From positions 1,711,343 through 1,775,342 of the forward strand of contig JAAVTG010001003.1 of assembly GCA_011947345.1 (NCBI GenBank): a stretch of 64,000 nucleotides of DNA, given 5' to 3'. This DNA comes from Phytophthora quininea. Taxonomy: Eukaryota > Oomycota > Peronosporomycetes > Peronosporales > Peronosporaceae. The notes below the pieces were generated by a model. That model was not told where the DNA came from. It did no database searches and worked only from the letters and a program-made list of their open reading frames with translations. This document shows positions 34,641-64,000 of this stretch, in pieces. Made by a program: the position numbers and the translations under genes. Numbering within the stretch: the stretch's first letter is position 1; each line of letters opens with the position of its first letter.

Positions 34641-34742
34641 ATAACACTTTTCCATTTTACTTATACATTTTCGTGGCGTGGCTGGGACGGGGCATCTGAC
34701 GAGAAGGATTTTGTTCACAAAGCCTTGTACTGCTTGAGGAAC

Positions 34743-36813: not shown

Positions 36814-37125
36814 TGTGGTGGATGTCCGAATCGGAACCGAGTGGTCGAAGTACGCTGGAAGTTGGTTTACAGGAAAGAAGTAGCATGGGTCTGGCGTCGA
36901 GATGCATCGTTGACTGGAAAACATCCACTTTTTCTTAACCTCGTCGGCGCACGTTGTCGGGAGTAACACGGTTGGCACGGCGCTTGACATTGAACGCCTC
37001 CAGTGCGGCTGGTGACAAATTGCGCTTTGCACCACGGCCCAACTATTCCCGCACAAAATACCGGCACTAACGTAACAGGACGACATGGAAAAAGTTTGCC
37101 ACTGACGCGCATTCAAAACATAATC

Positions 37126-38860: not shown

Positions 38861-39118
38861 GGTGATCTTGGCGTGGTATATTCGAGTAAAGATCTTTGGC
38901 AGGAATGCTGAGCAACGGGTAATGATGTCAAGCCCAACCGTCGAGCTCTCGTTGACGAAGAGGAAGCCCCACGTAGTCGTTGGGTTGTGCAGATACGACC
39001 CCCACATAACCGCTCATGAGTTCAAAACCACAACTTTGTTCAACACTACACATGTGCAATCCATTTCTCCAAGGGCAACGGCATTTCGACGGTGTCCGAG
39101 CCGGTTAAGTGGTGTATC

Positions 39119-40964: not shown

Positions 40965-41336
40965 CAACACCCTGAGAATAGTGTCTTGTCTCGATTTGAA
41001 GCCAAAACTCCCAGCATACGCACGAAGACATTGTAGACGAAGAAGAACAGCAAGCCCATGTGAAAACAATAAATACCGAGACTTTATTTGACGACGGGGT
41101 CCTTACATGCGGACCGTTGTGCTTGGCTTTTCATCACTCAAAAAATCGTATCTACACAGCACCTACGGGGCTGGTAATGTGCACAGCGTGGCGCTGCCCA
41201 GCGAGCACTCTTACTCCCTGAGCGCTCGCTTCATACCCGGCAGCGCCTGCAGCGAACGGCACGCTCATAAAAAGGGAATTCTGCAAACTGGATAAAGAGC
41301 TCAGTCGCCACCACCACTTCACTCGTGGCCGTGTCT

Positions 41337-45403: not shown

Positions 45404-45900
45404 CTACACCTGCATCGCAGCCTTGTATTCGCGCACCTCGCGCTCGTGCTGCTCGGCCTCGAGTCGCAGCTCCTCGCGGCGCTTGGCCTCCTGCTCTTCC
45501 ACCTCGGCGCTGTGCACGCGGTGGTAAATGGTCGAGATCGGGATGTCATCGGCGCTGAGGACGACTTCCGCGGCGCCAGCAGCGGCGGCTGCTGCGAGTG
45601 GATCGACACGGCCTCGGGCACACGTAGCACCTCGTCCGGCGCAACGCTCGCTGCTTGGTTCTCTGGCGGCAGCTTCAGCTTGAGCTCCAGAGGCGGCGAA
45701 ACGCTGTCTCCCACTGGTTCGAATGTCGGCTCGTCTTGGTTATCGCCCTCGCTTCGGTCCATTAGCATGTCCTGGGCTTCATTGTCTACGCCCACGCGGT
45801 GCTCCACGAAGTCCGAGGGCACCACAACATCGACATCGTCCGGGGCTGCAACATACTCCTTGTCGGCAGACCCGGCGGACTTGGAAGGGCAGCAGCCCAT
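45404..45900 (-). CDS. Small dually acylated coiled-coil protein (MGCCPS N-terminus)
   Basis: The ATG at 45900 gives MGCCPSKSAGSADKEY. Gly2 followed by two Cys is a classic N-myristoylation plus palmitoylation signal, so membrane anchoring is likely. The middle is acidic (DDVDVVVPSDF, EGDNQDEPTFEPVG). At about 45580-45575 the original frame turns into Ser/Arg-rich nonsense, while the next frame continues with VVLSADDIPISTIYHRV and a charged helix (EVEEQEAKRREELRLEAEQ) ending YKAAMQV at 45404. The helical, low-Gly frame is clearly the coding one, so one base is missing or extra in a GC-rich run. The product would be about 165 residues. The layout resembles the human LAMTOR1/p18 scaffold of the lysosomal Ragulator complex in general design (MGCC start, acidic middle, helices). 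That similarity is a suggestion only. Confidence 0.7.
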
Positions 45901-46531
45901 GCAAGCGCGTGGATTGACTTGCTCAGTGGGAGAACGAAACTGCCAAACTGCCGCCAAGCAGCAAGGCAAAGTCACCAAACGTCCCCGAGTAATGAGACCA
46001 GTCAGACGAGGCGATCATTTACGGCCTTTCCTCTGTGCCACCATATGGTTGATGAGTCGGACATAAAACGAGCATATCAATCGATTGGCCAAAAACATTT
46101 CGACCAATGAAAAGAAAGCGGTTTTGGGAAGAGGCATCAAAGTTACTTAGAATCACTGACACATACAAAACGCTAACTCTTGGTATTGTCATTTACTTCC
46201 CATTACATAACGATTAAGCTGACCACGTGATTTTTCCAGCAAACACAAGCTTGTGTGTTTCAGCACAAATTTCCTCTAACATCCATTCAGATATCTGCAT
46301 GATGGTCGCCTTTGTCTAGTCATCACCAACGGCAATGACTGGCAGTAAATATCATCTAATTTTCGTTGTTGTTATCCACTTTAAAAGAAACTCGCCACCT
46401 AAAACACTACGTTCGTCCTCCCACCCCAAATGCCCTTCTCCCGTTCATTGGACCTGCTCTGTAGCAACTTGAGAAACGAAGACGCAGCGTTGCTACTCCG
46501 AGGAATGTAGACCTGAAAGACTGTCAAGAGC
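45901..46531. other. No gene recognised
   Basis: Upstream region of the small acylated protein and AT-richer sequence towards the MULE relic. No signature was seen. Confidence 0.4.
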
Positions 46532-47346
46532 ATGCCCATGCCTTGCATGACTAGCTGCGCGAGAGCCCTCTCTCTCTCTCCCCATTTTATACGCTACAAC
46601 CTTCTATGCAAAACGCTTGAGAACCTCATGCCGCAGCGCATTTTGCATGCGCTAGGACATCGGTTCGAACGGGGTGCGATCTCAGATCTCTCAAAGTTCA
46701 CCACCTATGCAAAAAAGCAACGGCTCCATGGCAATTAATTTAACTGGCAATGCTTTCACTCGCCCACTGGATTCACGACTACCAACAACCCCGTTGAACA
46801 ATTTAACGGGGCGCTGAAGAGAGTTTACACTCGCCATCGGCAACTGAAGATGGTGTTGTTGCTTGTCCAGCAGCTAGCATGTTGTGGCCCTTCCGCAATC
46901 CTACTACGTCCGACATGCACCACTACCTTGCGAACGCGCAGAACTGACATGCGCCGGCGCGGCCTGCTAACGGAAAATGTCGTCACTCCGCAGCAGTATC
47001 AAATTCTTGCTAGGTAACGCCTATCCCGGCCTGATTTACATCCGTGCTGTGCCTCCACCGCGCACCTTCATCCCCGAGCTCCACCACGCCAGCGAATCTG
47101 TTGCTATCTCTGCCCACTTTGGAGTGCACTATGTCCGCATGGAGATTAAGGTCAGCCGTTGACAGGGTCGCCGGTCAACTTGACGTCAATGCATTACCCC
47201 ATCTATTTCAGGATGGGGTTCTGCTGTCACCTTCTCTTCGCGCTGCAATCTCGAAGTGTCGTAGACGAATCTGGCGACAACATATTAAAGAATCGCAAGT
47301 GGCTCACAAAGGCCGGACGTCCGCAGACAGTCGGTCACGCGCTATA
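46532..47346 (+). pseudogene. MULE transposase C-terminal relic
   Basis: After a frame break at about 46740 the sequence reads WQCFHSPTGFTTTNNPVEQF followed by NGALKRVYTRHRQ (about 46744-46840), the N-N-P-x-E block holding the third catalytic residue of MULE transposases. Downstream are LTENVVTPQQYQILAR, GVHYVRMEIK, and LTGSPVNLTSMHYPIYF followed by RMGFCCHLLFAL (about 47164-47255), where a SWIM zinc finger would be; only part of its Cys/His set remains. GRPQTVGHAL ends the recognisable part. It lacks the 5' catalytic core and lies in several frames. Confidence 0.65.
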
Positions 47347-47525
47347 ACGCCTGCGAACTCTTATGGTCCTTGACTCAAGTTTTATATTCCAGCAGCGCAA
47401 GTTTCTCTAGTGTTCGTGAATCGAAGGTCATTTAACTTCAGTTAGATGGGATTTTGCCGTCAACCAGATTGGTCGTCTGTTGCTCGGGCTCATCGAGGAT
47501 CACACCCTTGAGTTACGGTATTCTG

Positions 47526-48585
47526 CTATAAACGTGAGAGCTGGAAGAGCACTGGGAGATACACATGGATAATGCATTTCGGGGACAGGGACGATGTATA
47601 AGTACAGCTAAGCGTCATTGTTTGGGTGCTTTTGCTGGTTGTGCCTGTTGTAGCTGTTCCGCTTATCAAAATGCTTGTTGTATGCCTGGCAGTATCCTCT
47701 GGGATCATGACGGGTGGGGTCTTTCGTTTCCTTTTCAGGGTTGTCTTGGGAGTAGCGCTGATGGTTGTGGGTAGCCTTCTTGGTGTCACAGTGAAGCAGA
47801 ACTTGTACAGGTACGGATTGAAGTATGATGCCTATGTTAATTATCTTCTTAAGTAATACTTTTGGCTTCAATGTAGCAGTGAAGCCGGGCATTTTCTTCA
47901 TCGTACTCAGCACCCCCATGCACCAGATTGCCCCTGAAGATCAGAATTTGGTCTTGTAGCGGAGCTGCGTAGCAGTGCACGTGCACAGAGGAAGACGTAC
48001 GACTCCCCGAGTCTGTCTCTTTAGGCGTCCCGCCTTCGGTTCTATACAAGAACCAAGTACAGTCCCGTAACTAGGACTCGCAGAGTCTGTGTCCCTTAAA
48101 ACAAGGACAACACTATTTCTTGTGACATGTGAGCACAATTCCAGCTACTGAGGGCTTTTGTGATGCCGATGGTGCCGAGAAAGAACTTCAAGCTCACGCT
48201 CGAGGAAACATCTCGTTGGTATCCACACTTCATAAACCCTCGAACTTCACCCGATATCCCAAGGGACTGCAGCAGCATGTGTAATATAAATCGGCTGCTG
48301 CATGTTTGGGCTGAGGTGCTACACCGCTGTTATATGTCGGAGTGGAAGTGTACGCCACTCCAGGCGAGTTGGGTCTAAAGGGAGCTTCGTTACAAGCCTT
48401 CACTTCACCCGATACGGAGCCGGGTCGACGAGTAGAAACCTTCGAGTTCCACTTAATATTATCCAAAATGGAGTACCAAGCGTGGTGGAGCTTTCGACGC
48501 AGGGACCTGTTTTATAAATGTGCTTCGCTTTACGTTCTTGGCCCCATGGCTTGCAAGCCATGGAAATATGGGACGTTTTAGACAC
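47526..48585 (-). pseudogene. Decayed ORF with a double-stranded-beta-helix-like block
   Basis: Minus-strand frames read, from 48585 downwards, an N-terminal part (MACKPWG..., then FLLVDPAPYRVK), a middle region (GFMKCGYQRDVSSSVSLKFF), and finally LQDQILIFRGNLVHGGAEYD followed by EENARLHCYI (47950-47870). The H-x-G...R-x-H-x-Y-I pattern after a hydrophobic strand looks like the C-terminal half of a cupin or 2-oxoglutarate-oxygenase-type barrel. Many stops and frame shifts separate the pieces. I recall similar ORFs as repeated families in oomycete genomes, but cannot test this here. Function unknown. Confidence 0.4.
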
Positions 48586-49009
48586 GCCAGTAGGATGGCA
48601 TCAGGTGTGGGGTTTCACGTGAAGACGCAACGTATTTCTTCAAGCCTTTTCAACACGATAATATTTACGATACCTTACAGCAGGAAAAATCTTCCGGGGC
48701 CGCTGTGTAGTGTTGCTTCACTCAAGAATCTCCGCAAATATCTTGCAGCTGGAGCTTATCTTATGAGTGTGCCAATGATTACAATTGTCACTGCTTCGTC
48801 GGATACATCCGATTTTGCCCTAGCCAAGCTACCGCAGGTTTGGCCAGACAGGGCTCACCCTTACATTACCGGCCATTTGCAACTGTTGTTGTATTTCCAG
48901 AAATCGACGTTGCCTATTTGCCAAAACCGTGTTTCGGAGGCCATATTGGCCTCCAGGTTCTGTTTGCCATATCACCTTTTGTTGCAAGGCGCATGAACGC
49001 CCCAACTGA
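48586..49009. other. No gene recognised
   Basis: Short frames only between two minus-strand coding-like stretches. Confidence 0.4.
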
Positions 49010-49669
49010 CTACTTGCTCGCCACATTTTTCGCTCCACGAGCTCGCTTCTTGGGCGATGGATTAAGGTCGTTGGCATCTCCAGTCGACCGCGCATCGTCA
49101 TTGCCGCTCGCAGATGATGCTGGGGTTTCGTTGCCATCAACTCTGCGGTTGCCAGCTCTCGCGTCCTCCACAGTCGACGTCAGTTCCTCAAGACCACGTC
49201 CAGCGGTCGACGAAACATCGACGGCCACCACAGAAGTGCTACTTTGGGGCTGCGAACTTCCTTGCGGCAGTTCGTAATACAGGCGGATACCGTGAACTCT
49301 CGTGAAACAGTACGCCTTGCCCACTTCGAACGCCCACATATCCGATAGCGAGCGCTTCTTCGGCTTCCATAGCGTAAGTGAGAACACGAACTTGTTTCGG
49401 CGTTGCTGATCCAACTTGTCGAGCATGCTGATGACGTCGTTGATACAGTCAGCATAATCGTAGTCGATCAGCTCAACTCGAATGTTTATGATGGTCTCCT
49501 TGATGGCGACGACGCACATCTCGATGGTGTGTTGGTTGTTGGCGGTGGATTCTCATCGGAGACAAAGGCGCGGAGCTTCGTCCATGTCGCGGAAAGCAGA
49601 GCGATCTCCGTCTTAAATATGGTCAGCCAGTTCTGCCTCCAACGCGTTCATCAGACCGGTATGGGTCAT
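49010..49669 (-). CDS. Hypothetical protein
   Basis: The ATG at 49669 starts MTHTGLMNALEAELADHI, and a shifted frame continues with EIALLSATWTKLRAFVSDEN. From 49519 a clean frame runs CVVAIKETIINIRVELIDYD, DCINDVISMLDKLDQQRRNK, LWKPKKRSLSDMWAFEVG and GIRLYYELPQ, then a Ser/Thr/Asp-rich tail ending in a basic cluster (PSPKKRARGAKNVASK) that could be a nuclear localisation signal. Residue use and the even mix of hydrophobic and charged residues look like real protein. No family was recognised. It is divergent from the SET-domain gene, with roughly 210 bp between the two starts. Confidence 0.5.
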
Positions 49670-49878
49670 TTTGAAGAATGAACACGCCATGGCCTTCCTG
49701 CAGCCTCCCCAGATCACTTGCTCCGACTGGCCGTCTTTGCTAGCATTGGACGCCATTCATCTCGCATCCAAAACCCAGACGATGTCGTCGCCTCCTCCGA
49801 CCGGTCGTATTCGCTCGCCGCTCACTTCGCATCCAGAAACCAAAAGCTGCTCATGGCCCGCCGCCGTCGTATCCTCTC

Positions 49879-51181
49879 ATGTCTGATCGCCACGAGGAGC
49901 TGCAATCCTTCTTTCCGATCCACCAGCATATTCTGAGCAGCGGTGTGGAGGCGCTTTGATCCGTCGCTATGAGAAGCACACTGAATCGTCGCCGCGTCCT
50001 CTCACCAGGTCGCCGTCCCAAAGGTTAGCTCGCACGATCCAACATGCGTAGCAGCCGCCCGGTGCAGATTCTCAAGCAAACGACGTTGTGCATTTGAGCC
50101 ACCTGGATCATTCGCAGCGACGTTATCGGCCGTTCCGACCGTTGAAGGCATGCCGCTGTGGCAAGTCGGCGGCTCGAACCCTCTGAATCCGAATCAAGGC
50201 ACGCGGTAGCTTCGTTGGCTGTGGCAACCGACAACGGGGAGGTGGGGGTGGGGGGTGGTTTTGTCGGCTGTGGCATTGCGGTTCCTGGACAGCGAAGGAT
50301 CTGCCGTGGCCGACTCTAGTTGGTGGCGTTCATGACGTCGTCGTCGTGGAACCGTGGCCAGCCGGGATTTCACCTATTCACGAGAACTTCTTTGCTGGCG
50401 TGTCCTCGGATGCACCCCGCTTCGACTATCCGCACTATGAGCACTGCGGATGCCATCACATCTGCTTCGGTGAGGGGGCTCATGCTGCATCAACTTCCGG
50501 ACAAACGCGTTGTGCCACAGAAGCAACTGCCCCAACGGCATCGGCTGCGGCAATCGCTTCATCGAAGATTACCCACTGGAGCCCATTACTTCGGCCTGCG
50601 GCATCGGTGTGGCATCCACTCGATCGATACCAAAGCACGCGTTCGTCGTCGAGTACATCGGCGAGTTGATCAATGAAGTCGAGAAGGAGCGCAGAGATTA
50701 CCCCGACTACACGATACAGATACGTCACCCCACGGCAGATGGCCGCAGCTTTTTCATCGATGCAGCCAAGTGTCGCAACATGAGTCGGTTTATCAATCAT
50801 TCATGTAGGCCAAATGCAGCCTTCTACGAGTACCAATGCGGCAACTCCACCCGCATCGGCATCTTCACGATAAACCACATCGAGCCACTTCAAGAGTTGT
50901 GTGTCAGCTACTCCCCAGTCGCCAAAAACAACCAGCTCTGGTTCCGCTGTCGCTGCGGCTGGCCAAGCTGCACCGGGAGGAAACACCAGGACGCATACAG
51001 CCACTGCGTGGTATCCACCAGCAGCGATGGCTCTGACATCGCGCGGCAAAGCCGTAGGCATGCAGGGATCTACGGATCTGAGGGTCGCATCCAACGCAGT
51101 GACGCGTTGGCCGACCACCGCGCGTCTCACAGCTCGGTCAGAGCCGCCCCAGGTCGCCAGAATCCCCACCGCTGCCGGTAG
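49879..51181 (+). CDS. AWS-SET-postSET histone lysine methyltransferase
   Basis: The catalytic part is clear: an AWS-like cysteine cluster (HYEHCGCHHICF, then CINFRTNALCHRSNCPNGIG, about 50436-50545), then SET motifs GIGVAST, FVVEYIGELI, RNMSRFINHSCRPNA (the N-H-S-C cofactor site, about 50776-50820) and LCVSYSP, and a post-SET CRCGWPSCTG (about 50951-50980). This order is that of the SET2/ASH1/NSD group, which methylate H3K36 or related sites in chromatin. A G-run indel at about 50475 joins the two halves of the AWS cluster. Upstream, a frame with VEPWPAGISPIHENFFAG leads in. A possible first exon begins at the ATG at 49879 (MSDRHEELQSFFPIHQHILS) but contains shifts, so the start is tentative. 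No PHD, bromo or other reader domain was seen. Confidence 0.8.
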
Positions 51182-52085
51182 CGGCAGACCAAGCTGTCGC
51201 GCTACTTCTGCACTGCACCACCACAACACTAACATGATAATTAGGACGAGCTTGACCGGGATACCTTAACTGTATAATGCTCGTACTCAGTACAAACGAG
51301 TTTCGCTGCAGACTCAGTCCTGACAGCAGGAGACCTTGCCTTGTGCACGGCAGAAGTGCTTGTGCGAGCGCTAACAAAATGCGGTGGGTGCGCCATGACT
51401 TTTGCACAACCCTAGGCCGGCGGAGCGTCCTGAATCTTGCGCATTCTAGACATTTTGGCTTTAACCGGCCAATGGGGACTGGTTAACCTACTATATTTGC
51501 GTTGAGGCGGCTAATGGACGCCGGGGAGCCTACACTGTGGCTGCTCCAGCCGTGATCATCACTCGGCTCGTCACTCTGCGTGAGTGATTATCACTACTTT
51601 TCTGAAATTTCGCCTCGCGACCTCTGCGACCGGTCGCCGGGAACGCGATCGACTGATGACAATACAAAACCTAGCATAAACGGGTAGTACCGTGGGCGGC
51701 CAGAGAGGTTGATTCGTGGTGACTTACACGAGATTTAGGCTTCTGAAAATGGGAAGGGGCACAGAGTGGTACCGTCGTAGCAAACGAGAGCGACGCATAC
51801 AAATGGCGAGTGTCTGCTCGAAACGGCTGGCGCCAGGACTGTTTGCAACGCATAAAATTCAATAAACAACCACCGATGACGCTGAGGACTGTTATACTCT
51901 TTGCATAGCTAAGAGAACATACTCGAGCGGTGCTCCAGAACTCGCAATATTGATAGAGTTAGACTTCCCAACGTGGGTGTGCGTAACCACTTGGCGGGCA
52001 GTGTACGTAATCGTCACAGAGCAATTCAGAGCGGAAATCAAGTACTGGATCTGCGTGTTTGCTTTGGGATGCTCACGACTGGAAT
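51182..52085. other. No gene recognised
   Basis: There are only short frames. The stretch would hold the promoter and any lost 5' end of the LRR-like gene to its right. Confidence 0.4.
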
Positions 52086-52088
52086 TAG

Positions 52089-52814
52089 TTACAACGAAAG
52101 CAGCAAAAAGCACTTTCGGTGCAGAGAGCGCAGTCGTTCCAGCTTGACAAGGTGGAGCTTGGCTGGGGTGCTATTTTGTGCCACTTGCACAATCTAAAGC
52201 GACTGGATCTGTCGTTGATGCCACCGGGGAGTCCTCACGTCAAGAAGTTGGTGGAAGCTGCAGCCAAGTACTGTGTTCATCTGGAAGCGTTGATTCTGCC
52301 CGGACAGCACTGGCCAAAGGACAAAAGGCAGCGACCGGATGCTGTCCAAGTGGAGCCGGTCCTTGAGGCAGCCTGTGAAGGGATGAAGAGATGGCGCAGT
52401 GGATTGAAGCAGCTGACGGTGCCCACGGTAAACAGCGCGTTCAGTTTAAGGATGAGCTCCAAGTTCATTGCAAACGTGGTCAAGTACTGCCCTAATGTTA
52501 AGTATCTGGATGGATACCAGCAGTCTTTGTGTGAAAGGTACTGCCTTACTTGCCGACAGTTCTGTCTGGTGACTGTGCAGCAGTGGGAAGATTTTAACGC
52601 TGCCTGTACGAACTTGAAGGAGTTCAATTGGGTGGTCGTTCCCTTCGGCGATCCGTTCTTTAGAGTGTTTGATGAGCACGTAAAACCTCAGCTGAAAGCG
52701 CTGACGTTTGAAGTGAATATGTTGTGGGGCTAGGACACCTACAGCGCTTACAACGACGAAGGTCCAAGGTCTTTTGGAGTATCGTCTGAACATCCAGGGT
52801 ACGGAACCAAGGCG
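52089..52814 (+). pseudogene. Leucine-rich-repeat-like protein, 5' part, split by a transposon
   Basis: The frame opens after a stop at 52086 and lacks an ATG, so its 5' end is unresolved. Repeats of the degenerate F-box/AMN1-like LRR kind are visible: LHNLKRLDLS, CVHLEALILPG, LKQLTVPT, CPNVKYLDGY, CTNLKEFNWV and LKALTFEVNML. An in-frame TAG at 52731 follows MLWG, where a tryptophan codon TGG would keep the frame open. The same frame then continues as DTYSAYNDEGPRSFGVSSEH and PGYGTKA to the insertion point at 52814. The 3' half is at 58780. No function beyond protein binding can be suggested. Confidence 0.7.
52805..52814 (+). repeat. 10-bp target-site duplication, left copy
   Basis: AACCAAGGCG, identical to 58780-58789. 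It lies in the reading frame of the LRR gene. A 9-11 bp duplication is what Mutator-like elements make. Confidence 0.8.
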
Positions 52815-52958
52815 GCAAATACTTAAAGTCTGTTGCGTAGGCACTACATACCTGTTCGGATGTCTCCATCTACTCGCAACCTGTTGCAACCACTGCTCCG
52901 CTGTTGGTTATCACAAGTCTGTCAGTTTTCAAACGTGCCGATATGAAATCCTGTCGTT

Positions 52959-55425
52959 GTGAAACCGACGAAACCTCTGCATATAGCAGCATCGAGTTGT
53001 GCTCACTCTCGTATCGTCAGCGGCTACATCACATCGAGGCCACCGTGGCAAAGGTCGGCATCCACCAGTGCTGAGGAGCCAGGACCTCCTTTCAGCGATA
53101 GCGACACCAGTTGGCAAGCAGAATCGTCATCGAGCGAAGACAGCAAAGACTCAGATCTCGACTATGGTGATGAAGAAGCCATTGCAGTAGAGGAATCATT
53201 TGCCGCAGCATCAACAAAAGACTTCCTTCTTGTGGGTGTCCTTTCAACGTTTCTACAGGCAAAACAGGCGATGGGTGATGTTGACGACTTCGGACACACC
53301 TACCAGACCAGATACGAAACACGGCGCCTGTTAGTACACGTCTTCAATTGCCGTTCACATGCCAACTGCACGCACCGATACAAGATCCGTAGGGTTTTCT
53401 TGGGTGTGGATGAAGCTGAATTCCATCTAGAAGAGCATGGGTCGCACTCGCTAGTTGAAACACATAAGAAAAAAGGGAATTCATCCATCGTTGCAAGAAG
53501 AAGTTGATACACTTGTCGACATGGGTTGGGGAGCTGGCCGATTGCGGTCGATGCTGCTTCGCAAGTACCAGAACGACGCCGCCAAACTTCGCAAGATTCC
53601 GACGACCAAACAATTAGAAAACAGGAAGTACTTTCTTGTGAGACGCTCTCCAGGTGGCTGGGACATCACGAACCACGCTACATTCACAGCATGGGCAAGT
53701 ACGCGGATCTGTAACTCGCGCGAGCAATTTGATGCAGTCGCTGACGCCAGCGACGGCAGACTCGATGATCTGATTGTGTTGAGCACATTTTCGTTTGCCG
53801 TTGCTGATTGCGACCTGGGATATTCTTTCGGTGTCGTTGTAACTTCACGCCGCGTTTTTAGTAACGTGAGAACCTCAGTCAGGGACCAAGATTCGACTCT
53901 TGTGTGTTGCACTGATGGAACCTACAAGTTACACTTCGGAGGTTGGACAGTGATTGATTGCGGAACTGATGGTGTGTATTGGTACCGAGGGAAGCTAGTG
54001 CATCGCTTCATTCCTTGGGCATACATGTTTGTCCGCAGCGAATCAACTGAAGCCTACACCGAGCTATTCAAAACAATTCGTGACCGAGCGCTCACGTTTT
54101 TGGCATCGATGTCAATGTTTCTTTTGGTTCTCTTGATCACAGCGAGGCAATAGCCGCCGCCTTTGAGACAGTATGGCCTGGTGTGGTCCTCCTAACATGT
54201 TGGCCGCATCTTGCCCGACAGGCAAGAAAGAAACGTTCCTTGTTGAACTGTGCGGAGCTATACGAAGACATGATTCGGCCTCAAATTCGACTTTTCAAAA
54301 GTGCTAGATCGCACGCTCAATTCGTAAAACTTTGTGAAGTGGTGCTAGCAAATTGGGAGGCATATGGAGAGCAGGAGTATGCTGACTGGTTCCGATCTGT
54401 GTACCTCGGAGTACGCTGGAGTCGCTTGCACTTGACTGGTTCAGGATCTGGGGGAATTATTTCAAGCCAGCAAGATATTGAGTCTCATCACAGTGTTATC
54501 AAGAAGACATGCGTTCCCAGTCTCCGAGCATCGACGAATGGCGTCTTGAAGGGGATCCTACCTCGAATCTTGCGCTTAGATGGAGAAAGCCTTTGCCCGA
54601 GAGCTGCGGCGCATTACACCAAGGCCCCGTCCCGCCTGAAATGCTTACTAAAGCTGGTCAACTCGTGGCATCGACCCAGAATTATAGATGTGTTCACAGA
54701 GGCCGCGGGCATTCCAAACGGCTGGTAGCGATTGTCTTTAACGCCTCAGGGTACATTGTTGGAAGCGATGGCATGTTGGGGACCAGGGTTGATGCTCGAC
54801 GCTCTCAGCAGTTTATGCGGTCGCTTGACAGGCGTTTTCCGCGAGGAATTAAAGCGAGAGAATTTCAATGTGAAGTACTTTCAATGCACCGCGTCCTGAT
54901 GTTGGGTGAGAAGCCATCTCAAGCTCTACAACTCGCTCCGATATGGTATATTGACACCATCAAACTCATTCGAGACTACGTCAGCTGCACATGTGGATCT
55001 TATATGACGTCGGGGTGGGTGTGCTCACACATCCTGCTACGCTTGTAATTCAAAAGCTACTGAATTTGGATGCTGCAATTGCATCTATACCTGTACGGAG
55101 AACTCCGGGAAGACCCCCAACACGGTGGCCGGCTCTCACATTTGAGCCATCTCAAGAAGGCTACTACAATGTGGATAGACTCATCCGACTATTCATAAAA
55201 AAAAAAAACGGGCATCCTCTCAAGTGGAAAGTTGTGGTAAGCTCAGAGGGTGAAGTTGATGAGAGGAGCGTGCACGTGGGTGAGGTGCTTGGGCTGCGAC
55301 TCTCCGACGGGGTTTTTCTTTGGAACGTGAGGTTTGGCAGTGGGGACCAACGGGAATTTGATGTGCAACAACTCGCTGAGGCTGTGAAGCGAGCTCATGA
55401 GCTTGGGGTACAAATTACGGGGTAA
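52959..55425 (+). pseudogene. MULE transposase with C-terminal SWIM finger
   Basis: The N-terminus is Ser/acidic, then comes a Cys/His region (FNCRSHANCTHRYKIRRVFL, about 53344-53403). A shifted frame from 53455 gives GIHPSLQEEVDTLVDMGWGA. The first catalytic block is VCCTDGTYKLHF (about 53903-53938), the second HSEAIAAAFETVWPG followed by LLTCWPHL (about 54140-54215, across a shift), and the third QQDIESHHSVIKK (about 54472-54510). The SWIM finger CTCGSYMTSGWVCSHIL sits at about 54988-55038, and a C-terminal tail with GRPPTRWPAL ends at 55425. The DDE order is complete, but frames change near 53495, 54100, 54515 and 55040. It is either a decayed copy or one hit by assembly indels. It differs clearly from the MULE type at 12.2, 15.1 and 46.6 kb. 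Confidence 0.8.
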
Positions 55426-55530
55426 GTCGATACTAGGAGACTGTGACGAGCAACAATAGGTACATGCATACGAAAATAGGCTACACTAAGCACAGCAATT
55501 AGTGTTAGTGGATATTTAGTGTTAGTTTTG

Positions 55531-55560
55531 TATTAGTGTTAATAACACTAATTCGTGTGT
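55531..55560 (+). repeat. Subterminal repeat with 21-bp palindrome, left copy
   Basis: It contains ATTAGTGTTA and TAACACTAAT as palindrome arms around one A. The 30-bp stretch recurs in direct orientation at 57571-57600 with one mismatch. Several single TTAGTGTTA motifs lie around both copies. Such arrays often bind the transposase; this is inferred. Confidence 0.85.
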
Positions 55561-55682
55561 TCTACGGTAGCCAGAAAAACTCACACTAATTCAGGAATTA
55601 TTGGAGCACAGTTTGCTTTCTATCCCATTCTCATTCTGACCTGACACAGACACCAGTTCACAGCAAGCCACAAAGCACGACA

Positions 55683-57504
55683 ATGTCCTCGCACGATTCG
55701 TGTACCGCTTCAACGACAACACCTTCTCCTAGAAAACCCTATCTCATCGAGGCTGCAATGGAAAGAGCACGAGTACTTGCAGCTAATAGGCAAGAAATGC
55801 GAGGTGCACAAGTTCATTCTGACGAAATCTCAACGGACTCTCCACAGCTTCCGTCCATTGAAAGCTCGTCAATGGCAGACTCGGCGTCACTCGACACCAA
55901 GAAACGGAAGCGCAAACTGCAACATGTCTCCACAAAGCAAGACAAGCTCGCCGTTCTCAAATGGATGATTGCCGCCGACAAAGTCGACTCAAAGTATCTG
56001 TTCAAGCGCACAATCGCTGCTTTTCCCGAATGCTTTCGAGCAGATTCTGACTCGGCTAACTACATGAAGGCATCGCGGTGGTGGAAAGATAGGCAGAAGT
56101 TTATTGACGCCTTTTTCGTCCTGAAAATCGGATGTCCGTCCAGGCCCTTCAGCCTGGCACTCGCAAGCATGTTATGCTCAAAGCCTTGCCTGGCCGCGGT
56201 CGCAAGCGCGATCCATGGACCGATTGGCTTCATCTGTTACTACAGGAGGAATTTCACCGGCTTCGCAAGGCTGGGTTGAAGCTCACACCCACAGTGCTTG
56301 TCTCCGTTGCTAAGTATCTACTTGCTGACTCTAACCATGAAACTTACTGTAAGACTTTCGTTCCTCCTGGCAAGGAAATTCCATTTTATGAGCAGTTAAA
56401 TGTGAGATGGATTCAAACGTTTCAGGAGCACTTTAATATTGTACAACGAAAGCAATGCGGTAAAAAGCAGCTAAGTCCGCAAAAGGAATTGCAGATTGAA
56501 CGCGAGGTAGCGTTTCACATGGGTATTTTGAAGCGCGGTTTTGACAGTGGAGAATTTACCGACACTCATATGGCTAACATGGATGAAACGCATTTCATTA
56601 TTGATATGGATAATGGCAGAACACTAAACACTAAAGGAACGGAACACATCCAATATGCTGACGTTGTATCAGGAACGACTGGTATGACAATGGTTGTACT
56701 AATCGAAGGGGAAGTTCTGCCAAAATTGGGGTGCCAATGATGATTTTTGTTAATGCTGATGGCAATTACCCAATTCGCGGCGTTCCTGACAACATACCAG
56801 GTGTGTGTTGCTATCCATACGTGAACATGGAGATGTACACTACTAACGCAAAACTGTATAACAGGTGTGACGTACCGAACAGCGCCAAAAGGCTTTATGA
56901 CGTCCTCTGTGTTTGCCAAATGGCTTGGAGAACGGCGAGTGAACAGAAGACGACGGGGTACTCGCAAAATGATTCTCTGGGCGGACAACTATAGTGGTCA
57001 TGGCATAACAGAAGCTGCTAAGGCGCAGCTAGAAGAGCTCAACATTGATTTACGCTTCTTCCCAGCAAACGCAATGCACCTTGTGCAACCGGCGGACTCT
57101 TTCGTCATCTCAAAAATTAAGGATGCATGGACTAAACGCTGGAACGAAAAAAGGTGGAAATGATTCGAAACGAGCAATGGCAAAATAACGTGAGGAGGGA
57201 TGGTTCTTGGTCCGGCGCGCTACAAAATCCAGGCAAGCGGTTTTATCTTCAGCTCGCGGCTGATTCTGTCCGAGATGTCAATGCACAAATAACAGCTAAG
57301 GACAGCATCTCATATGCACAGAAAGCTATGATACGGTGCGGATTAGCGTGTAAGAACGGCAAATGGTCAGTATCACAGCTGAGCAATGAGCTCCAGTACA
57401 TTATTGAGAAGCACTACCAGCACTTTATGGGAAAACCTGCCAACGAAGCCGAAGATGAAGACAGAGATAGCGTTTGTGGACAGACTCTAGAAGCTGTTGT
57501 GTAA
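55683..57504 (+). pseudogene. pogo-type (DDE_1) transposase, frame-disrupted
   Basis: The N-terminal region has a helix-turn-helix-like KLAVLKWMIAADKVDSKYLF. After a shift near 56115 the frame reads LKALPGRGRKRDPWTDWLHL, LTPTVLVSVAKYLLADSN and NVRWIQTFQEHFNI. The first catalytic Asp is in NMDETHFIIDMDN (about 56577-56613). A shift near 56707 leads to MMIFVNADGNYPIRGVPDN; another near 56880 leads to SSVFAKWLGERR and the second Asp in ILWADNYSGHG (about 56972-57004). The third is in VQPADSFVISKIKDAW (about 57082-57132). A last shift in the A run at about 57145-57151 opens the C-terminal tail to 57504. All three acidic residues survive, so decay is slight or the shifts are assembly errors. Confidence 0.82.
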
Positions 57505-57570
57505 CATTCATTACGCTAGCTAACACGAACACAACACTAATTGATGGTACCTTATATAGTGTTAGTGTCG

Positions 57571-57600
57571 TATTAGTGTTAATAACACTAATTCATGTGT
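57571..57600 (+). repeat. Subterminal repeat with 21-bp palindrome, right copy
   Basis: Direct-orientation partner of 55531-55560, with 29 of 30 bases identical. Confidence 0.85.
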
Positions 57601-57882
57601 ACTTTGAAAATGGAGACTCTCGCTAATAGTGTTAGTAACACTAATTGCTGTGCTTAGTGTAGATGTAGTGAGTGCTCTGGGCACTGCGAACTAGGGACCC
57701 GAAACAGGAACAAAGAGGTTGTAGATATCTATACTAAAGTACCAAATATGCAAGCTAGTCACAAGTTTACTTTGTGTACAGGATCGAAATATGGAAATTG
57801 TATACTTTAGAGAAGCGTGCGAGTTCTGCATTATGCAAAAGTGTGCTAGTTCTGCACCATACAGAATTGTTAGTGCTGAACC

Positions 57883-58203
57883 ATGCAAAACCGTGCTAGA
57901 CGTGGCATGCAGATATTTAAAAGTTTATCCATCTACAGACAAGTGATAGTTACTACTATTGTTTTCCACGCCACATGGAGATTGCGAAACGACATTCGTT
58001 TCCGTGAGACGGAGGCAGAAATGCCTAACGTTGTTAATCTGCAAAGTTCCTTTAAGATGCACTACCAATTCATTTACCAGCATGCGACGGATCTTCATCG
58101 CGATTCCCCAGCGATTGCAGAACTAGTCCGGCAATTGGGGTTTGATCCTCCGAAGGACATTCTTCTAGAAAGGCCGCAGAGTATTTTGATCCCGCAAGTT
58201 TAG
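57883..58203 (+). CDS. Small ORF inside the MULE insert, possible LINE remnant
   Basis: This 107-codon frame lies 3' of the nested pogo element and within the MULE limits. It contains VFHATWRLRNDIRFRE and IAELVRQLGFDPPKD. The first block vaguely resembles the end of non-LTR retrotransposon reverse transcriptases (H-A-x-W-x-x-R-N), but this is weak. It might also be a second MULE ORF. The frame is open with a normal stop, and no other support is visible. Confidence 0.3.
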   Translation: MQNRARRGMQIFKSLSIYRQVIVTTIVFHATWRLRNDIRFRETEAEMPNVVNLQSSFKMHYQFIYQHATDLHRDSPAIAELVRQLGFDPPKDILLERPQSILIPQV

Positions 58204-58779
58204 CTGAATTCTGAGAATGGATTCTTGATTAGATAGATTGTCTAAGCTACACCTTCCAGACGAGAAAATCCGCTAACTAGTTAATCAAATCAGCTCAACA
58301 ACCACAGACATGGATAGCTGTGCAGTTTAAAAAATGGATTTGGATTTGCCATGTGAAAAATGTTAGCTGTATTACAAGGTGCGTCGACGCTGCAGTTCGC
58401 TGCAGTTGAGGAAGTTTTAGAGATGCTAACTATGTATTTTGTCGTGCACCACACTCTTGTTTTGATTGGATTTCTTTAATACCTCGGTACAAAATGTTAG
58501 AATCGCTCTCTATATGCCCAAATACGTGGTTTCCATGATGAATTTATTTTGTAGACACCTCTATTCATACGCCATATAAAATTCGAAATGTTATTAGCAT
58601 AATTTGCAACCTGTAACACTTCAACCAGTTGAAGTTGAGTTCGTGTGTGTGTCACATCATGTTACAGCTCTACAAAAAAAGGTTCCTAACACGTTTGAAG
58701 AGAATGTAATCGTCAGGAAGGGCGCGCCAACACTACAACAGCTGTTGAGTGAAAACACGACAGCTTTTAATTAGCACCC
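58204..58779. other. 3' end of the MULE insert, AT-rich, no gene
   Basis: Non-coding sequence with an A/T bias up to the right junction at 58779. Confidence 0.5.
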
Positions 58780-59877
58780 AACCAAGGCGACTAACTCTAG
58801 CTGCGCTTTGAAAGGATGTCCTAAGCTGGAGAAGCTGGTGGTGAATCTGTATCATCCTTACCGGTATCCTCAAAGCGAGGGCTATCTCGATCCCAAGACA
58901 TTTACCGAGACTATTTCCCACGAGAGGAGGTGCTCAATATCAACATTTTCGGCGACAGGTTTTGCGAAGCTATCGTCACTGACTGTCCGAATGTGAGTCA
59001 CTTTGAAATCACCGAGATTGCAGACCGGTTTAACTACCGTTTGTGGCCCATTGAGACCTTCACGGATGCTGGTCTGGCATCTCTAGCGAAACTTGAATTT
59101 CTCGCGACGCTGAGACTTCGTGGAATCCATTGTCCGGGTAACGGACTCTTCCAGTTCCTCAATGGTTTATCTGATGAATTCCTGGGGCAACGCTTGTTTG
59201 AGCTGCACTTAGATGGTGGCCCCGAGAAGTACGGGAAGGACTTTTATAATTCGCTAGAGGAACTGATGGAATCATTTGACACGGCAAAAACAGAGGAATT
59301 GCAGTGCATCAATCACAAGTCTGTGCTTCGTGTGACTAACACGTGGCTGTGTGAGGTGAATGCTCGATGGAGTCGTGAATACGTGCGTAAACTCATGCGC
59401 ATCGTGAAGCGCGTCAAGAAGCAACACCCATCGCTGCGTGTGCGGATTGTGACCGTACAGGGCAGTCCGGAGGGGTTTCACGGGATCGTCGAGTTCGGGG
59501 TGTACACGGCAAGCGCCGAACCTCCGGCCTGGTATTGCTGGGACAAGGACCAAAGCTGTCGAACCGTGACTTTCGTCAACCGCGACTACGCGGCTCCACA
59601 ACGTTGGGAATTCAAGGCGATGCAGCAAATGGATCGCTGGGCGGAAGGCGATTCTTGTTGTGACGACCAGTACTTGTACTGCCAAGGCATGGAAAACGCC
59701 GCCAACTATTTCAGTCGAGACGTCACTCAAGACGACATTAATGGTCGAGGCTGGCTCAGTGACGACCTCGATTTCGTTCCTTACTCCCCTGCTTGCTACG
59801 ACGTCGACGCGATGGACTTGTACATTTTTGTAGTTGTTGAAATGGGAATACAATTTTGTCAAGCTCGATTAAAATAA
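58780..59877 (+). pseudogene. Leucine-rich-repeat-like protein, 3' part, split by a transposon
   Basis: It begins with the right copy of AACCAAGGCG (58780-58789). From there the frame continues TNSSCALKGCPKLEKLVVNL, then shifts by one base near 58905 (a single G missing) into LNINIFGDRFCEAIV, CPNVSHFEITEI, LEFLATLRLRGIHCPGNG and LFELHLDGG. The C-terminal 180 residues are not repeats: AWYCWDKDQSCRTVTFVNRD, QMDRWAEGDSCCDDQYLYCQ and PYSPACYDVDAMDLY, a Trp/Cys-rich domain that I do not recognise. The stop is at 59877. Joined to the 5' part the reading frame agrees exactly at the repeat, which shows they were one gene. Confidence 0.75.
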
Positions 59878-59918
59878 CTTCTTTCGGCAAGACAACCGAC
59901 CAACGCGGCTTTGGAGCG

Positions 59919-61542
59919 ATGTTTTATGGAGATGATGGCGATCCGAGTAGCGACGAAGATCTTACAGATGTACTAGAAAGCTGTACACGAAAACTAGGAG
60001 AACTTTGTGGTGGGCTCAACGTGGAGCAACTCGAGGAAAAAATTGTGAAGAAATGAACTCGGACACGATTTCGTCGCTTGAGGAAGTTAGTGATGAGTGC
60101 GCCGCTCTTCTTGCTTGTCTTGAGTCTACAGAACCCAGGTACGTTGTAGGATTTATCATCAATGTACTTTTTGAGGCTGACTGCTTTGTAACAGCACATT
60201 ATACAAGATTTGGGAGGATGACAGTACATCTGAATTTTCATACGCTATGCTCGACCAGGAAGGCGAATCGCAAGAGCAGGTAGCTATTCCTTTGAACGTA
60301 AGGATGTTCCAGTTGACTAAGAACATTTGGCTTCGACGGCAGGAACATGAACTGGCGTCGGCTTGTCAAGAAGATCTCACACACGATCTTGATACATTTG
60401 CAGACGAGCTACAGGAATTAATGTCGCGACTTGGTGATGAACACGACGGTGCAGACTATATCGGAGAAGCTCCGCTGCCTGCGCCTTCTGGGAAATCGGA
60501 AAATGAAGAGAGGAAATCAGTCCATCAGGACAACTTCCATAGAGAAGAAGACAGTAGTAAAAGTCGTGCTTTTAAGGCGGAAACAATATCGTTCGAGCAC
60601 AAGGCCGTCTACAGCAAGCGAACAGAACAAGCTGTAGCAGTGCATGTGAAGAGGCAACTGCTGAGGCGGAGTGGCTCTAGAGTACGATCTTCAGCCTCAA
60701 GGGCATCAGTTCATCGTCGATCAGAGACACATACAGAATGTGTCGCCAATGTCAAAATCGTGTGGTCAAATTTCCAAAGCTCGAGTTTCCAACGACATGT
60801 CAAGCGTCAGCAACATGCAAGATTCCGCGTCAAGCAAGCCCAAACTGCGTTAAATGAGCTAGAAGCTTCACGCTTCCAAGGAACTGGAAAGAAACCGTCC
60901 AAGACGAGTGAAATGCGAGACCCTACACCATCGTCAGCACCGTCAAAGCCACTCGTCTCGGAACCAATCCACAGATCGTACCTCGACCAGTTCAGAACAA
61001 CGTCACGACCTTCACCAAGTGACAATACGCCGAAGTTCCTCTGTGCGGTATATCTCCATGGTCTTCGACGTTTAGGAACGACGTACATCACCTTCAATTC
61101 GCTTGATCAGTTGCAGCAGCGTGTTCGTGCAAGGTTTGCGATCAGTGAAGTCGTGGGTTACTATCGAGAGGTCAACGACGGCAACTTTCCTGCTGCTGGC
61201 AATCGAGGTCAGTACCAGAAGCGTCTACAACGAATTTCGACACTGGAGCAGGTGAACGACGGCGACACGATCTGCGTGACTCAAAGCGCCTACGACGACA
61301 TGACAATTCTCTGCGGATGGATCAAACGACGGCAACGCATTGTCCACTCTTTCGAGCACAACGTTCAACAAGCTCCAATAACAAGATCAAATTCTACAGA
61401 CACGACACCACCCAAGAAGAGAATGAACAGCAATGGCACCACCAAACCACAGGTATGGGACTCAAACGGACGCAGGCTCGGTGTCAAATCGCAGCTCTCC
61501 ATTTTATCCGACGAGTTATGGGAAAGCAACGCACAGTCGTAA
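59919..61542 (+). CDS. Protein with a C-terminal doublecortin/ubiquitin-like domain
   Basis: The start ATG at 59919 (MFYGDDGDPSSDEDL) lies 41 bp after the LRR stop. The first exon changes frame in an A run at 60036-60041 and continues CEEMNSDTISSLEEVSDECA to the donor at 60139. The intron is 60139-60194 (GTACGT...ACAG, 56 nt). Exon 2 opens YKIWEDDSTSEFSY and stays open to 61542. The middle is acidic, then basic and low in order (VHVKRQLLRRSGSRVRSS). Near residues 340-430 comes FLCAVYLHGLRRLGTTYITF, VVGYYREVNDGNF and ISTLEQVNDGDTICVTQ. The hydrophobic spacing and the final L-x-x-V-x-D-G-D-x-I-x-V match doublecortin-like or ubiquitin-like folds; DCX domains bind microtubules. The assignment is a guess from pattern only. 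Confidence 0.6.
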
Positions 61543-61551
61543 CATGACAAT

Positions 61552-63990
61552 CTAAACACTCTGCACACTGTTGAGCTTGAGCTCAATTCCATCGTCATCG
61601 ACAGAGTCGCTCGAGTCAGTGACATCAGGCTTCGTCTCCTCTGTAATCGGAGGAGTGTCTGGCGACGTAACGCCAAGCGGGGAACTGTGCAGTGCGTTGG
61701 ATCTAGGAGTAAACTCGAACGTGGTCTCCTTCGAACCGTCTTCTTGTGTCTTCTTCTGTTGGCATTTTACCCTTCAGGTAGAGATAGTCATTGTAGGCGT
61801 TGCGGTATTTCCGGTGGATGATGAGGATGCCCATCATCAGTAGCAAGACCACAAAACCCACTACGACAATTGCCACATAGACCGAGTAAAGCGCTCGAGT
61901 GTCCAGAACGACCGCACTTTCAGTACATGTCGAGATGGACTGTGTGTTTTCCGACGCAGTGCCACCATAACACGCCAGTTTGCGAGCATAGGAAACCGTT
62001 TGCTCACCACCAGAACACGCCGAGCGAAGCTCGTTAAAGTAGTCGTCGTCGCATATCGGACAAGCGAGAGCTGTCTTCCAGACGATGTTCCAGTTGCATT
62101 TGTCATCGTCTTGCACGGCCGACGTTGGCTTTGACGTTGTACCTACCAGAACGAGGTTAACAAATAAGAACAGCAATTCGTTAAAATCAGTACTTACCAC
62201 TGTTGAGGTCGCACTCAAAGTTAAAGGTAGTCGACATGGTCTTGCCGTTGGCACATGGCGATCCAGATGTGAATGCTACCTTCACGCCAGCGCCTGACTC
62301 AAGAGGGAGGATATCCATGTGGCTACCTCCATTCTTGATGCTCCATTGCTGTAAAATACAAGTTAGATACATCGAATCAAACTACAATGCAGTTGAGACC
62401 AACGTACCGCTGGAGCAGAGCACATGACGTTGCCATAGACCCCACTGCTCTGTTGGTAATAGTGACCAGCATCACGTGGGTTCGTCATCGAGGCAAAGAC
62501 CACGTACGAGACCTCAGTCTTCGTATCGACTTCTTGGTCGACGATTTGGCCAGGAACCTGCTCCTTCCAGCCACTACCAAGCGGGCGGAAGAGACCAGCG
62601 AACCAATAGTTCTGCTTATCCGCCTGGAAGGCTTCCGATGACTCTACAGGCTTCATCGACTGTAAGCTGGTAGCATTTCCGTACACAGTATCGTCTAGAA
62701 TCCAACTTTCATTGCCCCATACGAGTGCCTCCAACAGTGACAAATTGTACGTCACTTGTAGACCATCCAGTGCAGTTGAAACCTCCGCAGACATCGAGGA
62801 CGACGACGACAACGTCACTGTATCCGACGACGCAGTGGCGTTCAGCGTAAGCGCCTGAGGGGCAGCGCAAGCCACCGCACCTGAGCTACTATATGTATTC
62901 TCGCCACACGCAACGCATTCAGACGCTCCCTCCTTGGAGTAAGAATTCGCTGGGCATTCAGCGCATGCTACAACGCCAGTGGCGTCCTCGGACGCAGCAA
63001 ACGTTCCAGCGGGACAAATGCGACAGCCGTACATGTTCAAGTCGTCGTCTGGGTTGACAGGTTCGTAGCCTGTTGGACACGAAGCGCAGCTCACTCCGGC
63101 CCCACCTTCAGTGCCCATGAAGCCCACGTAGAGCAACTTGGCTTCGATGGCACGCTTCGCCGTAGCGTCTGTTGCACGCACTATTAGTGCGAATTGTTTG
63201 ACTGTTGGACTCGTCACGTTAATATGCACAAGTTGACTGAATGTGCCATTTTCTCCGCCATGAAGAAGATGCACCACGTTAGTTTTGCCGTTGGCGTCAC
63301 CAGATCCGCTGCCTGCATCGTTTGAGGTCGTTCCAGCAGCGCTACTGGACGCACTGGGGATGTTCATCGTCTTGGGCTTCTTCGAGTTAGCGGCCCCAGC
63401 GTTGTGGATTTCCAACTCGAGCCAAGCGCGCGATCCTTCATTTTCAAAAGTCGGTACACCGCTGAGTTGATACGTAAAGTTAAAGAACCCAGAGTGAACA
63501 TAAGGCACTGTAAACGGTAGGACGGATCGACTCGGACGAACCCAATCCGAATTGTCGTCACTGGCTGTGTGTTGTGCGAATACGAGCCCGTGCTTTGCAA
63601 GTTTCCAGCCGCTGTACTCGGCAGCCTGTTTGTTAAAAATCTGCGGCAATGTGCTCCACGCGTCAGGAGTCCCAGCGCCGTACTCCAGCGCCTTCACGAC
63701 CACTTGACCCGCTGGACACTGCGAGCAGGTGCCCGAAGCGGTCATCGTTTGACCCACTGGGCAAGCCTCACACGAATCGTCTTGCATGAGTTGATATCCG
63801 CGCGCGCATTTAGCACATTCCACCCCTTCTTCGGAGCTGGTAGCTCAATGCTGCTAGCTAGCGTAGAATCACAAGTCTGTGGCTGACTCCACGAGTACGT
63901 AACGTCTCTGGCGTTGTTTGTACAAGCAGTGTAGTTCTCTTCAACATCGTCCATCGAACACGCGCTGTTCAACGCAAGAATCGATACCAA
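61552..63990 (-). CDS. ELAPOR-type cysteine-rich type I membrane protein (5' end outside the window)
   Basis: ELAPOR proteins (KIAA1324 family) are secretory/endolysosomal receptors. The N-terminal part in view has NYTACTNNARDVTYSWSQPQ with a following Cys, then a shift near 63828 into CAKCARGYQLMQDDSCEACP, an ectodomain with GYKP-like repeats (CPTGYEPVNPDDD, CPAGTFAASEDATG, CPANSYSKEGASEC), NYWFAGLFRPLGSGW, and beyond two introns (62349-62407 and 62143-62197, both GT-AG) CDLNSG, KCNWNIVWKTALACPIC and ACSGGEQTVSYARKLACYGG. This late domain fits a mannose-6-phosphate-receptor-homology fold. A TM helix (YVAIVVVGFVVLLLMMGILI) precedes a cytosolic tail (HRKYRNAYNDYLYLK). A shift at about 61755 extends the tail in an acidic frame (DVTDSSDSVDDDGIELKLNS) to the stop at 61552; otherwise it would end at 61703. 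Its stop is 9 bp from that of the convergent gene. Confidence 0.8.
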
Positions 63991-64000
63991 TGGATCCTTT

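What the first reader, a model, noticed from the sequence alone, without database searches (positions are those of the whole stretch)
52805..58789. A gene split by a MULE: the 10-bp target duplication lies in frame and marks the exact junction
Seen: AACCAAGGCG occurs at 52805-52814 and 58780-58789. To the left are LRR-like repeats ending PGYGTKA; to the right the same frame continues into CPKLEKLVV repeats. Removing 52815-58789 joins the halves in frame. Known: Mutator-like elements make 8-11 bp duplications, and a MULE transposase lies inside. Inference: a single insertion broke this gene, and a TGG-to-TAG change at 52731 and a frame shift near 58905 came before or after it. The empty-site allele could still exist on the other homologue or in related strains, so this may be a recent polymorphism.
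Basis: partly seen in the sequence, partly recalled or inferred. Interest (0 to 1): 0.75.

Follow-up and report, generated by a model that had tools for sequence, protein, structure and literature searches.

The report
Jumping gene split one allele
One of two versions of a gene in an oomycete (a water mould) has been cut in two by a jumping gene that was later hit by another one, while the other version in the same genome assembly still reads through; it is a clean but ordinary example of gene loss by mobile DNA.

Summary
Contig C157 carries the uninterrupted version: one copy of AACCAAGGC, the two halves directly adjoining, in one 699-codon stop-to-stop frame. 47 of 49 homologous proteins, the named ones all from oomycetes, also align straight across the junction. 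The gene belongs to an F-box/LRR-like family (weak F-box match; homologue model closest to TIR1, COI1 and MAX2). Three other full-length copies of the element, each with a 9-bp duplication, show that it starts one base earlier than stated. So the duplication is 9 bp (52805-52813, 58780-58788), the element is 52814-58779, and the tenth matching base is chance. A pogo-type transposon (55484-57659) landed inside it later. 'A single insertion broke this gene' is not supported: the allele also lacks its start codon and first ~80 codons, replaced by 3.1 kb of repeat-derived sequence, and carries an in-frame stop. Its two one-base frame shifts may be sequencing errors. Most likely this is a heterozygous null allele in a genome whose haplotypes differ by about 3-5% at two loci. 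It is a known kind of event; the order of lesions is unresolved.

The parts
52004..52813 (+). Left remnant of an F-box/LRR-like gene (about residues 81-350 of the C157 protein), with an in-frame stop at 52731-52733 and a one-base length difference near 52.1 kb
   Evidence: 96% identical to C157:19125-19936; frames; alignment A1
52805..52813 (+). Left copy of the 9-bp target site duplication AACCAAGGC
   Evidence: single copy at C157:19927-19935
52814..58779 (+). Mutator-like element, 5966 bp including the nested transposon (about 3.79 kb without it)
   Evidence: Outer ends fixed by full-length copies on C704, C714, C570; degenerate terminal inverted repeats, 16 of 25
52959..55425 (+). Decayed MULE transposase region: overlapping fragments in different frames, with a SWIM-like zinc finger towards the end
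   Evidence: frames; homologue P0050 of the sister copy's fragment carries PF10551; direct Pfam MULE 0.2 and SWIM 0.34, 0.089 and 0.014 for the C704 copy, all below Pfam cut-offs
55484..57659 (+). Nested Tc1/pogo-type transposon, 2176 bp, TA duplications at 55482-55483 and 57660-57661, perfect terminal inverted repeats of 24 bp, decayed transposase
   Evidence: inverted repeat I1; DDE_1 E 4.7e-13 at 56897-57160; single TA at this site in C704, C714, C570; five further near-identical copies
57952..58299 (+). 348-bp stretch carried by the MULE that is also listed at 34 other places at 95-96%
   Evidence: 255 candidates, 40 scored, so a lower bound
58780..58788 (+). Right copy of the 9-bp target site duplication
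58780..59877 (+). Right remnant of the same gene; frame changes near 58.89 kb; the stop codon of C157 is not present and the frame runs on to 59877
   Evidence: 97% identical to C157:19927-21025
48866..52003 (.). [not shown]
   Evidence: SET E 7.9e-20; the 368 bp of C157 occur once in the assembly, on C157

Best explanation
The window carries a null allele of an F-box/LRR-like gene in a heterozygous oomycete genome. Shown: an open frame without the insert stands on contig C157, and in the window's sequence a Mutator-like element sits in a conserved stretch of the coding sequence with a 9-bp duplication. Shown: a pogo-type transposon later inserted at a TA inside that MULE copy. Shown: the same allele lacks its 5' end, where 3.1 kb of repeat-derived sequence stands instead. 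Inferred: C157 and C3 are the two homologues of one locus. Inferred: the mechanism is transposition with 9-bp staggered cuts filled in by host repair, followed by unconstrained decay while the other homologue keeps the gene. The order of MULE insertion, 5' loss and stop codon is not resolved; the MULE insertion is younger than the split of the haplotypes if rates are clock-like.
For: Empty site with one target copy on C157, halves adjoining; 699-codon stop-to-stop frame there. C157 and C3 are 94.8-96.3% alike over stretches of 8.6 and 5.2 kb, and the geometry is a dovetail: C3 ends at window 64000 inside the shared stretch and C157 starts at window 37957. One piece tested on either side of the overlap matches only itself over its length; other matches are partial and 64-90% alike. 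A paralogue locus also shows two sets of contigs, C135 versus C868/C869/C224, 96.5-96.9% alike. 47 of 49 homologues cross the junction in one alignment. Copies C704, C714, C570 have 9-bp duplications, unrelated flanks and no nested transposon. Of 27 amino-acid differences the family favours the C157 residue at 16, the C3 residue at 9 and neither at 2; where at least 20 of 49 homologues carry one of the two residues, 9 favour C157 and 1 favours C3. C3 element private substitutions: 38 of 3761 sites, against dS 0.098 and 0.037 between the gene halves.
Against: Allelism is inferred from assembly geometry; no reads or coverage were available. Divergence is high (dS 0.095 in the neighbouring frame) and the intervening DNA is rearranged, so a diverged duplicate is not fully excluded. 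The gene was also broken by other lesions, so the MULE may have hit an already dead allele. Nine of 27 amino-acid differences favour C3, so C157 has changed too. The MULE transposase is recognised only through one homologue that carries the Pfam domain. The C714 duplication taken alone would read as 10 bp.
Confidence: 0.88

Rival explanations
1. C157 and C3 are paralogous copies from a segmental duplication, not alleles; the insertion then broke one duplicate.
For: Synonymous divergence of 4-10% is high for alleles; window 46670-47954 is inverted relative to C157 and much of the DNA between the aligned blocks has no counterpart.
Against: Dovetail contig ends and no full-length second copy of the one piece tested on either side of the overlap; a paralogue locus shows similar divergence between contigs.
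Confidence: 0.09
2. The MULE struck an allele already dead from loss of its 5' end, so it did not itself inactivate the gene. This is a variant of the best explanation, not an alternative to it.
For: The 5' end is gone in this haplotype; the MULE's terminal branch (38 of 3761 sites) is short against the haplotype divergence.
Against: Nothing dates the 5' loss; copies of its SET fragment are 95-96% alike, which bounds little.
Confidence: 0.4
3. Assembly artefact: the element was misplaced into the gene.
For: C3 and C4 differ by many small gaps, so the assembly is imperfect.
Against: Both C3 and C4 carry the same junctions, though they may rest on the same reads; the 9-bp duplication and exact element ends are signatures shared with three other copies.
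Confidence: 0.02
4. The two halves are separate genes that happen to flank an element.
For: None found.
Against: One open frame on C157 and 47 of 49 homologues cross the junction; paralogue frames on C868 and C135 cross it too.
Confidence: 0.01

Closest known systems
Mutator-like elements of Phytophthora (groups MULE-Phytophthora_1 and _2 and MuDRx-Phytophthora in PMC6446971; passages and table rows seen)
   Same: Target duplication within the 8-11 bp given there and equal to the 9 bp of several table rows; SWIM-like finger; inserted in coding DNA
   Different: Terminal inverted repeats here are short and degenerate (16 of 25) against 40-81 bp, or none, in those rows; clade not assigned; transposase frames are fragmented in this copy and in the longest frames of the three sister copies
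Tc1/mariner superfamily, pogo/Tigger type (name recalled)
   Same: TA duplication, terminal inverted repeats, DDE_1 domain
   Different: Nothing notable seen; its transposase frame is broken in this copy
F-box/LRR ubiquitin-ligase subunits (TIR1, COI1, MAX2/D3, FBXL17)
   Same: The homologue's model is helical at the N terminus and then a helix/strand series; the best-ranked PDB matches are these proteins
   Different: Identity 10-14%, TM-scores 0.21-0.34 by query length and rmsd 8-18 for the F-box/LRR rows; other LRR proteins (NLRPs, ribonuclease inhibitors) follow closely; F-box match below the Pfam cut-off; Skp1 and substrate binding unknown
Transposon insertion polymorphisms that silence genes between Phytophthora infestans strains (PMC9584435; start of abstract and passages seen)
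   Same: Element with target duplication present on one version of a locus and absent on another
   Different: The two cases described there have 5-nt duplications near the 5' end of genes and are between strains; this one is inside the coding sequence and between contigs of one assembly

Membership tests
Mutator-like element | Target site duplication of 8-11 bp | tested here: met
   9 bp at 4 of 4 full-length insertions, counting C3 and its duplicate contig C4 once
Mutator-like element | MULE transposase domain | tested here: inconclusive
   Direct Pfam match below cut-off (E 0.2; 0.089); the closest homologue P0050, 52% identical, E 4.2e-62, carries PF10551; the other 4 of 5 hits list no domain
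Mutator-like element | Terminal inverted repeats | tested here: met
   Short and degenerate, 16 of 25 positions, reached by 9 of 100000 shuffles; some MULE families lack them (PMC6446971)
Mutator-like element | SWIM or FLYWCH zinc finger | tested here: inconclusive
   SWIM E 0.34 and 0.014, below cut-off
Mutator-like element | Mobility: copies at unrelated places | tested here: met
   The 1.5-kb flanks of C704, C714 and C570 share no similarity with one another
Tc1/pogo-type transposon (nested) | TA target duplication | tested here: met
   one TA in the three empty sites, two in C3
Tc1/pogo-type transposon (nested) | DDE_1 transposase | tested here: met
   E 4.7e-13 over one fragment; three other fragments gave no DDE match
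F-box/LRR protein | F-box domain at the N terminus | tested here: inconclusive
   PF00646 E 0.0085, 16.4 bits against cut-off 20.5 on the C157 protein; absent from this allele, which lacks the 5' end
F-box/LRR protein | LRR fold | tested here: met
   Model of homologue P0001 (36 of 49 homologues aligned, pLDDT 78.3, pTM 0.80); Foldseek E 1e-13 to TIR1 but TM-scores of only 0.2-0.35; profile hits ANP32A E 0.00066, FBXL17 0.078, COI1 0.19. The C157 protein itself was not modelled, and Pfam LRR matches on homologues were below cut-off
F-box/LRR protein | Binding to Skp1 and a cullin | not testable with these tools
   needs biochemistry
Heterozygous insertion allele | Empty site on the homologous chromosome | tested here: inconclusive
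   Empty site shown at C157:19927-19935; that C157 is the homologue is inferred from geometry and divergence, not from reads

The most novel reading that the evidence does not exclude
The two haplotypes are two diverged parental genomes brought together by hybridisation, and mobile elements are now removing one parent's copies gene by gene. This locus, with separate transposon hits on the same allele, would be a snapshot of that early fractionation.
Probability: 0.15. Interest if true: 0.5.

Novelty: new member of a known kind. Interest (0 to 1): 0.3.

Why it matters
It gives a complete before-and-after of a MULE insertion in one genome: filled allele, empty allele, and sister copies that fix the element's exact ends. 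It shows that an unphased assembly can present a gene as broken although an open copy stands on another contig. If the divergence seen at two loci is general, this genome would suit a test of how transposons remove one of two allelic copies in oomycetes.

Tried and rejected
A 10-bp duplication was rejected: two of three other copies mismatch at the tenth base. A single-insertion model was rejected because of the lost 5' end. The view that C157 is a product of element excision was considered and disfavoured: its site is clean and agrees with paralogues and homologues. Pfam at E 0.01 on ten window fragments (two gene, four MULE, three nested-transposon and one neighbouring frame) gave nothing. 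Identifying the species failed: the best named homologue is Phytophthora boehmeriae at 50%, and a paper search for '993 contigs' with 'oomycete' found 0 papers. Seven further paper searches showed the top 4 to 15 rows of 4 to 235 papers; of these I saw titles and starts of abstracts, and none looked like a description of this locus. Only PMC6446971 and PMC9584435 were opened, passages only. Dating the 5' loss was not attempted. Loci L055, L056 and L057 were fetched and not analysed.
Full report
What was checked. The repeat AACCAAGGCG occurs twice in the window, at 52805-52814 and 58780-58789, and nowhere else. The window is C3:1711343-1775342 of an 87.2-Mb, 993-contig assembly, and window base 64000 is the end of C3.

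The empty allele. Searching the assembly with the right half found three places: C3, C4 and C157. With the left half the three strong matches were the same, plus 8 weaker partial matches of 72-77%. On C157 the left half ends at 19936 and the right half starts at 19927, so the two share the duplicated bases once and there is no insert. C157 reads as one stop-to-stop frame of 699 codons, 18869-20965, with an ATG at 18884. C4 is a redundant copy of the C3 haplotype: 0 substitutions and 15 gaps over 16.7 kb; it carries the insertion too.

Allele or paralogue. C157:1-8603 matches window 37957-46568 at 94.8% and C157:19927-25149 matches 58780-64000 at 96.3%, with shorter matches of 86.8-95.9%, an inversion and unmatched DNA between. 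Window 33066-36938, left of the overlap, and C157:30001-34000, right of it, match only themselves over their length; other matches are partial, 40 to about 560 bases, and 64-90% alike. One piece on each side was tested. So the two contigs overlap like dovetails, as two haplotypes at one place would. At a paralogue locus, C868, C869 and C224 are 99.2-99.7% alike and C135 is 96.5-96.9% from them, so a divergence of 3-4% between contigs is not peculiar to this locus. Allelism remains an inference.

The gene. 49 homologues were found, after scoring 7996 candidates; the named ones are oomycetes, the best Phytophthora boehmeriae at 50%. 47 of 49 align across the junction in one piece, many with a GYG...AT...ALKGCP-like motif lying across it. 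The query began one residue before the ATG. Pfam sees an F-box only below cut-off (E 0.0085). A profile of 36 of the 49 homologues matches ANP32A (E 0.00066) and, weakly, FBXL17 (0.078) and COI1 (0.19) in the PDB. The model of homologue P0001 (pLDDT 78.3, pTM 0.80) ranks TIR1, COI1 and MAX2/D3 first (best E 1e-13), with TM-scores of only 0.2-0.35, and other LRR proteins follow. The family is large in this genome: 69 matched pieces to the C157 protein, including those of C157, C3 and C4 themselves, often several pieces per gene, with clusters on C868, C869, C135, C224, C833 and C543. No secretion signal was looked for.

The MULE. Left and right parts of the element match C704, C714 and C570 out to both outer ends at 97-98%. 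Their flanks are unrelated to one another and carry 9-bp duplications. All four insertions have a G before GCAAATAC, as has the partial copy on C474; in C704 and C570 the tenth base differs, in C714 it happens to match. The element therefore runs 52814-58779 and the duplication is 9 bp, within the 8-11 bp given for MULEs and equal to several rows of the table in PMC6446971 (passages). Terminal inverted repeats are short: 16 of 25. The transposase is in fragments in C3 and in the longest frames shown of the three sister copies. Its closest protein relative carries the MULE domain, while direct Pfam matches stay below cut-off. Partial copies lie on C474, C931, C281 and C108.

The nested transposon. 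55484-57659 has 24-bp perfect inverted ends, TA on each side and a DDE_1 fragment at E 4.7e-13. The three sister MULEs have a single TA there, so it came after the MULE copy formed. Five other contigs hold copies at 99-100% as rounded by the tool, a sign of recent activity.

The lost 5' end. Homology of the C3 allele to C157 begins only at 52004. Where C157 has about 368 bp with the start codon, C3 has 48866-52003, and the 368-bp piece C157:18756-19123 occurs once in the assembly. The 3.1-kb patch is a mosaic: a 94-bp repeat, a 2.96-kb stretch with copies on C736, C375 and C116 and an open frame with a SET domain (E 7.9e-20), and an 88-bp terminal repeat of a 1.5-kb element flanked by TA in its C172 copy. 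PMC6446971 lists SET domains for 14 members of one Phytophthora MULE group; whether this fragment is one was not tested. The simplest reading, inferred, is insertion of the TA-type element followed by a deletion or rearrangement joining it to the other repeats.

Decay and timing. Between alleles, 613 comparable codons (2 with gaps left out) hold 22 silent and 28 changed codons, one of them a stop. Of the 27 amino-acid changes, homologues favour C157 at 16, C3 at 9 and neither at 2; where at least 20 of 49 homologues carry one of the two residues it is 9 to 1. dN and dS are 0.023 and 0.098 in the left half, 0.017 and 0.037 in the right half, and 0.037 and 0.095 in the neighbouring frame at 60253-61542, from which 2 codon positions with a stop were left out. 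So overall the changed-to-silent ratio of the broken gene is not higher than that of its neighbour; the sign of decay is where the changes fall. The C3 MULE has 38 private substitutions in 3761 sites; C704, C714 and C570 have 12, 45 and 18. Under a clock this places the insertion after the haplotype split, but it does not order it against the 5' loss.

Conclusion. The event is of a known kind; transposon polymorphisms that silence genes are in print for P. infestans strains (PMC9584435, start of abstract and passages). What is new is this instance and its clean anatomy.

Noticed in passing
window 46670-47954: Inverted relative to C157:9820-11134 (86.8% identity), beside stretches with no counterpart; the locus is rearranged well beyond the MULE.
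   Followed up: no
window 57952-58299: A 348-bp stretch inside the MULE is listed at 34 other places at 95-96% (a lower bound) and lies in the matched part of the three sister MULEs; perhaps a captured retrotransposon end (a guess).
   Followed up: no
window 50474-51178: SET-domain open frame (E 7.9e-20) in a repeated 2.96-kb fragment with copies on C736, C375 and C116.
   Followed up: partly
window 28950-34640: Dynein heavy chain domains in successive open frames (AAA_8, AAA_9, MT stalk, Dynein_C); whether introns or breaks separate them was not examined.
   Followed up: no
window 39625-41031, minus strand: DNase II-like open frame (E 3.1e-13).
   Followed up: no
G000:C3:810019-822192: Four copies of a relative of the nested pogo element at a constant spacing of 3328 bases: a tandem array.
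   Followed up: no
L051 (C704), L052 (C714), L053 (C570), MULE flanks: Open frames of 80-188 codons meet the insertion points, so other copies of this MULE may also sit inside genes; whether left and right frames belong together was not examined.
   Followed up: partly
G000 C3 versus C4; C868 versus C869: Redundant contigs with no substitutions but several small gaps, hinting at uncorrected gap errors in the assembly.
   Followed up: partly
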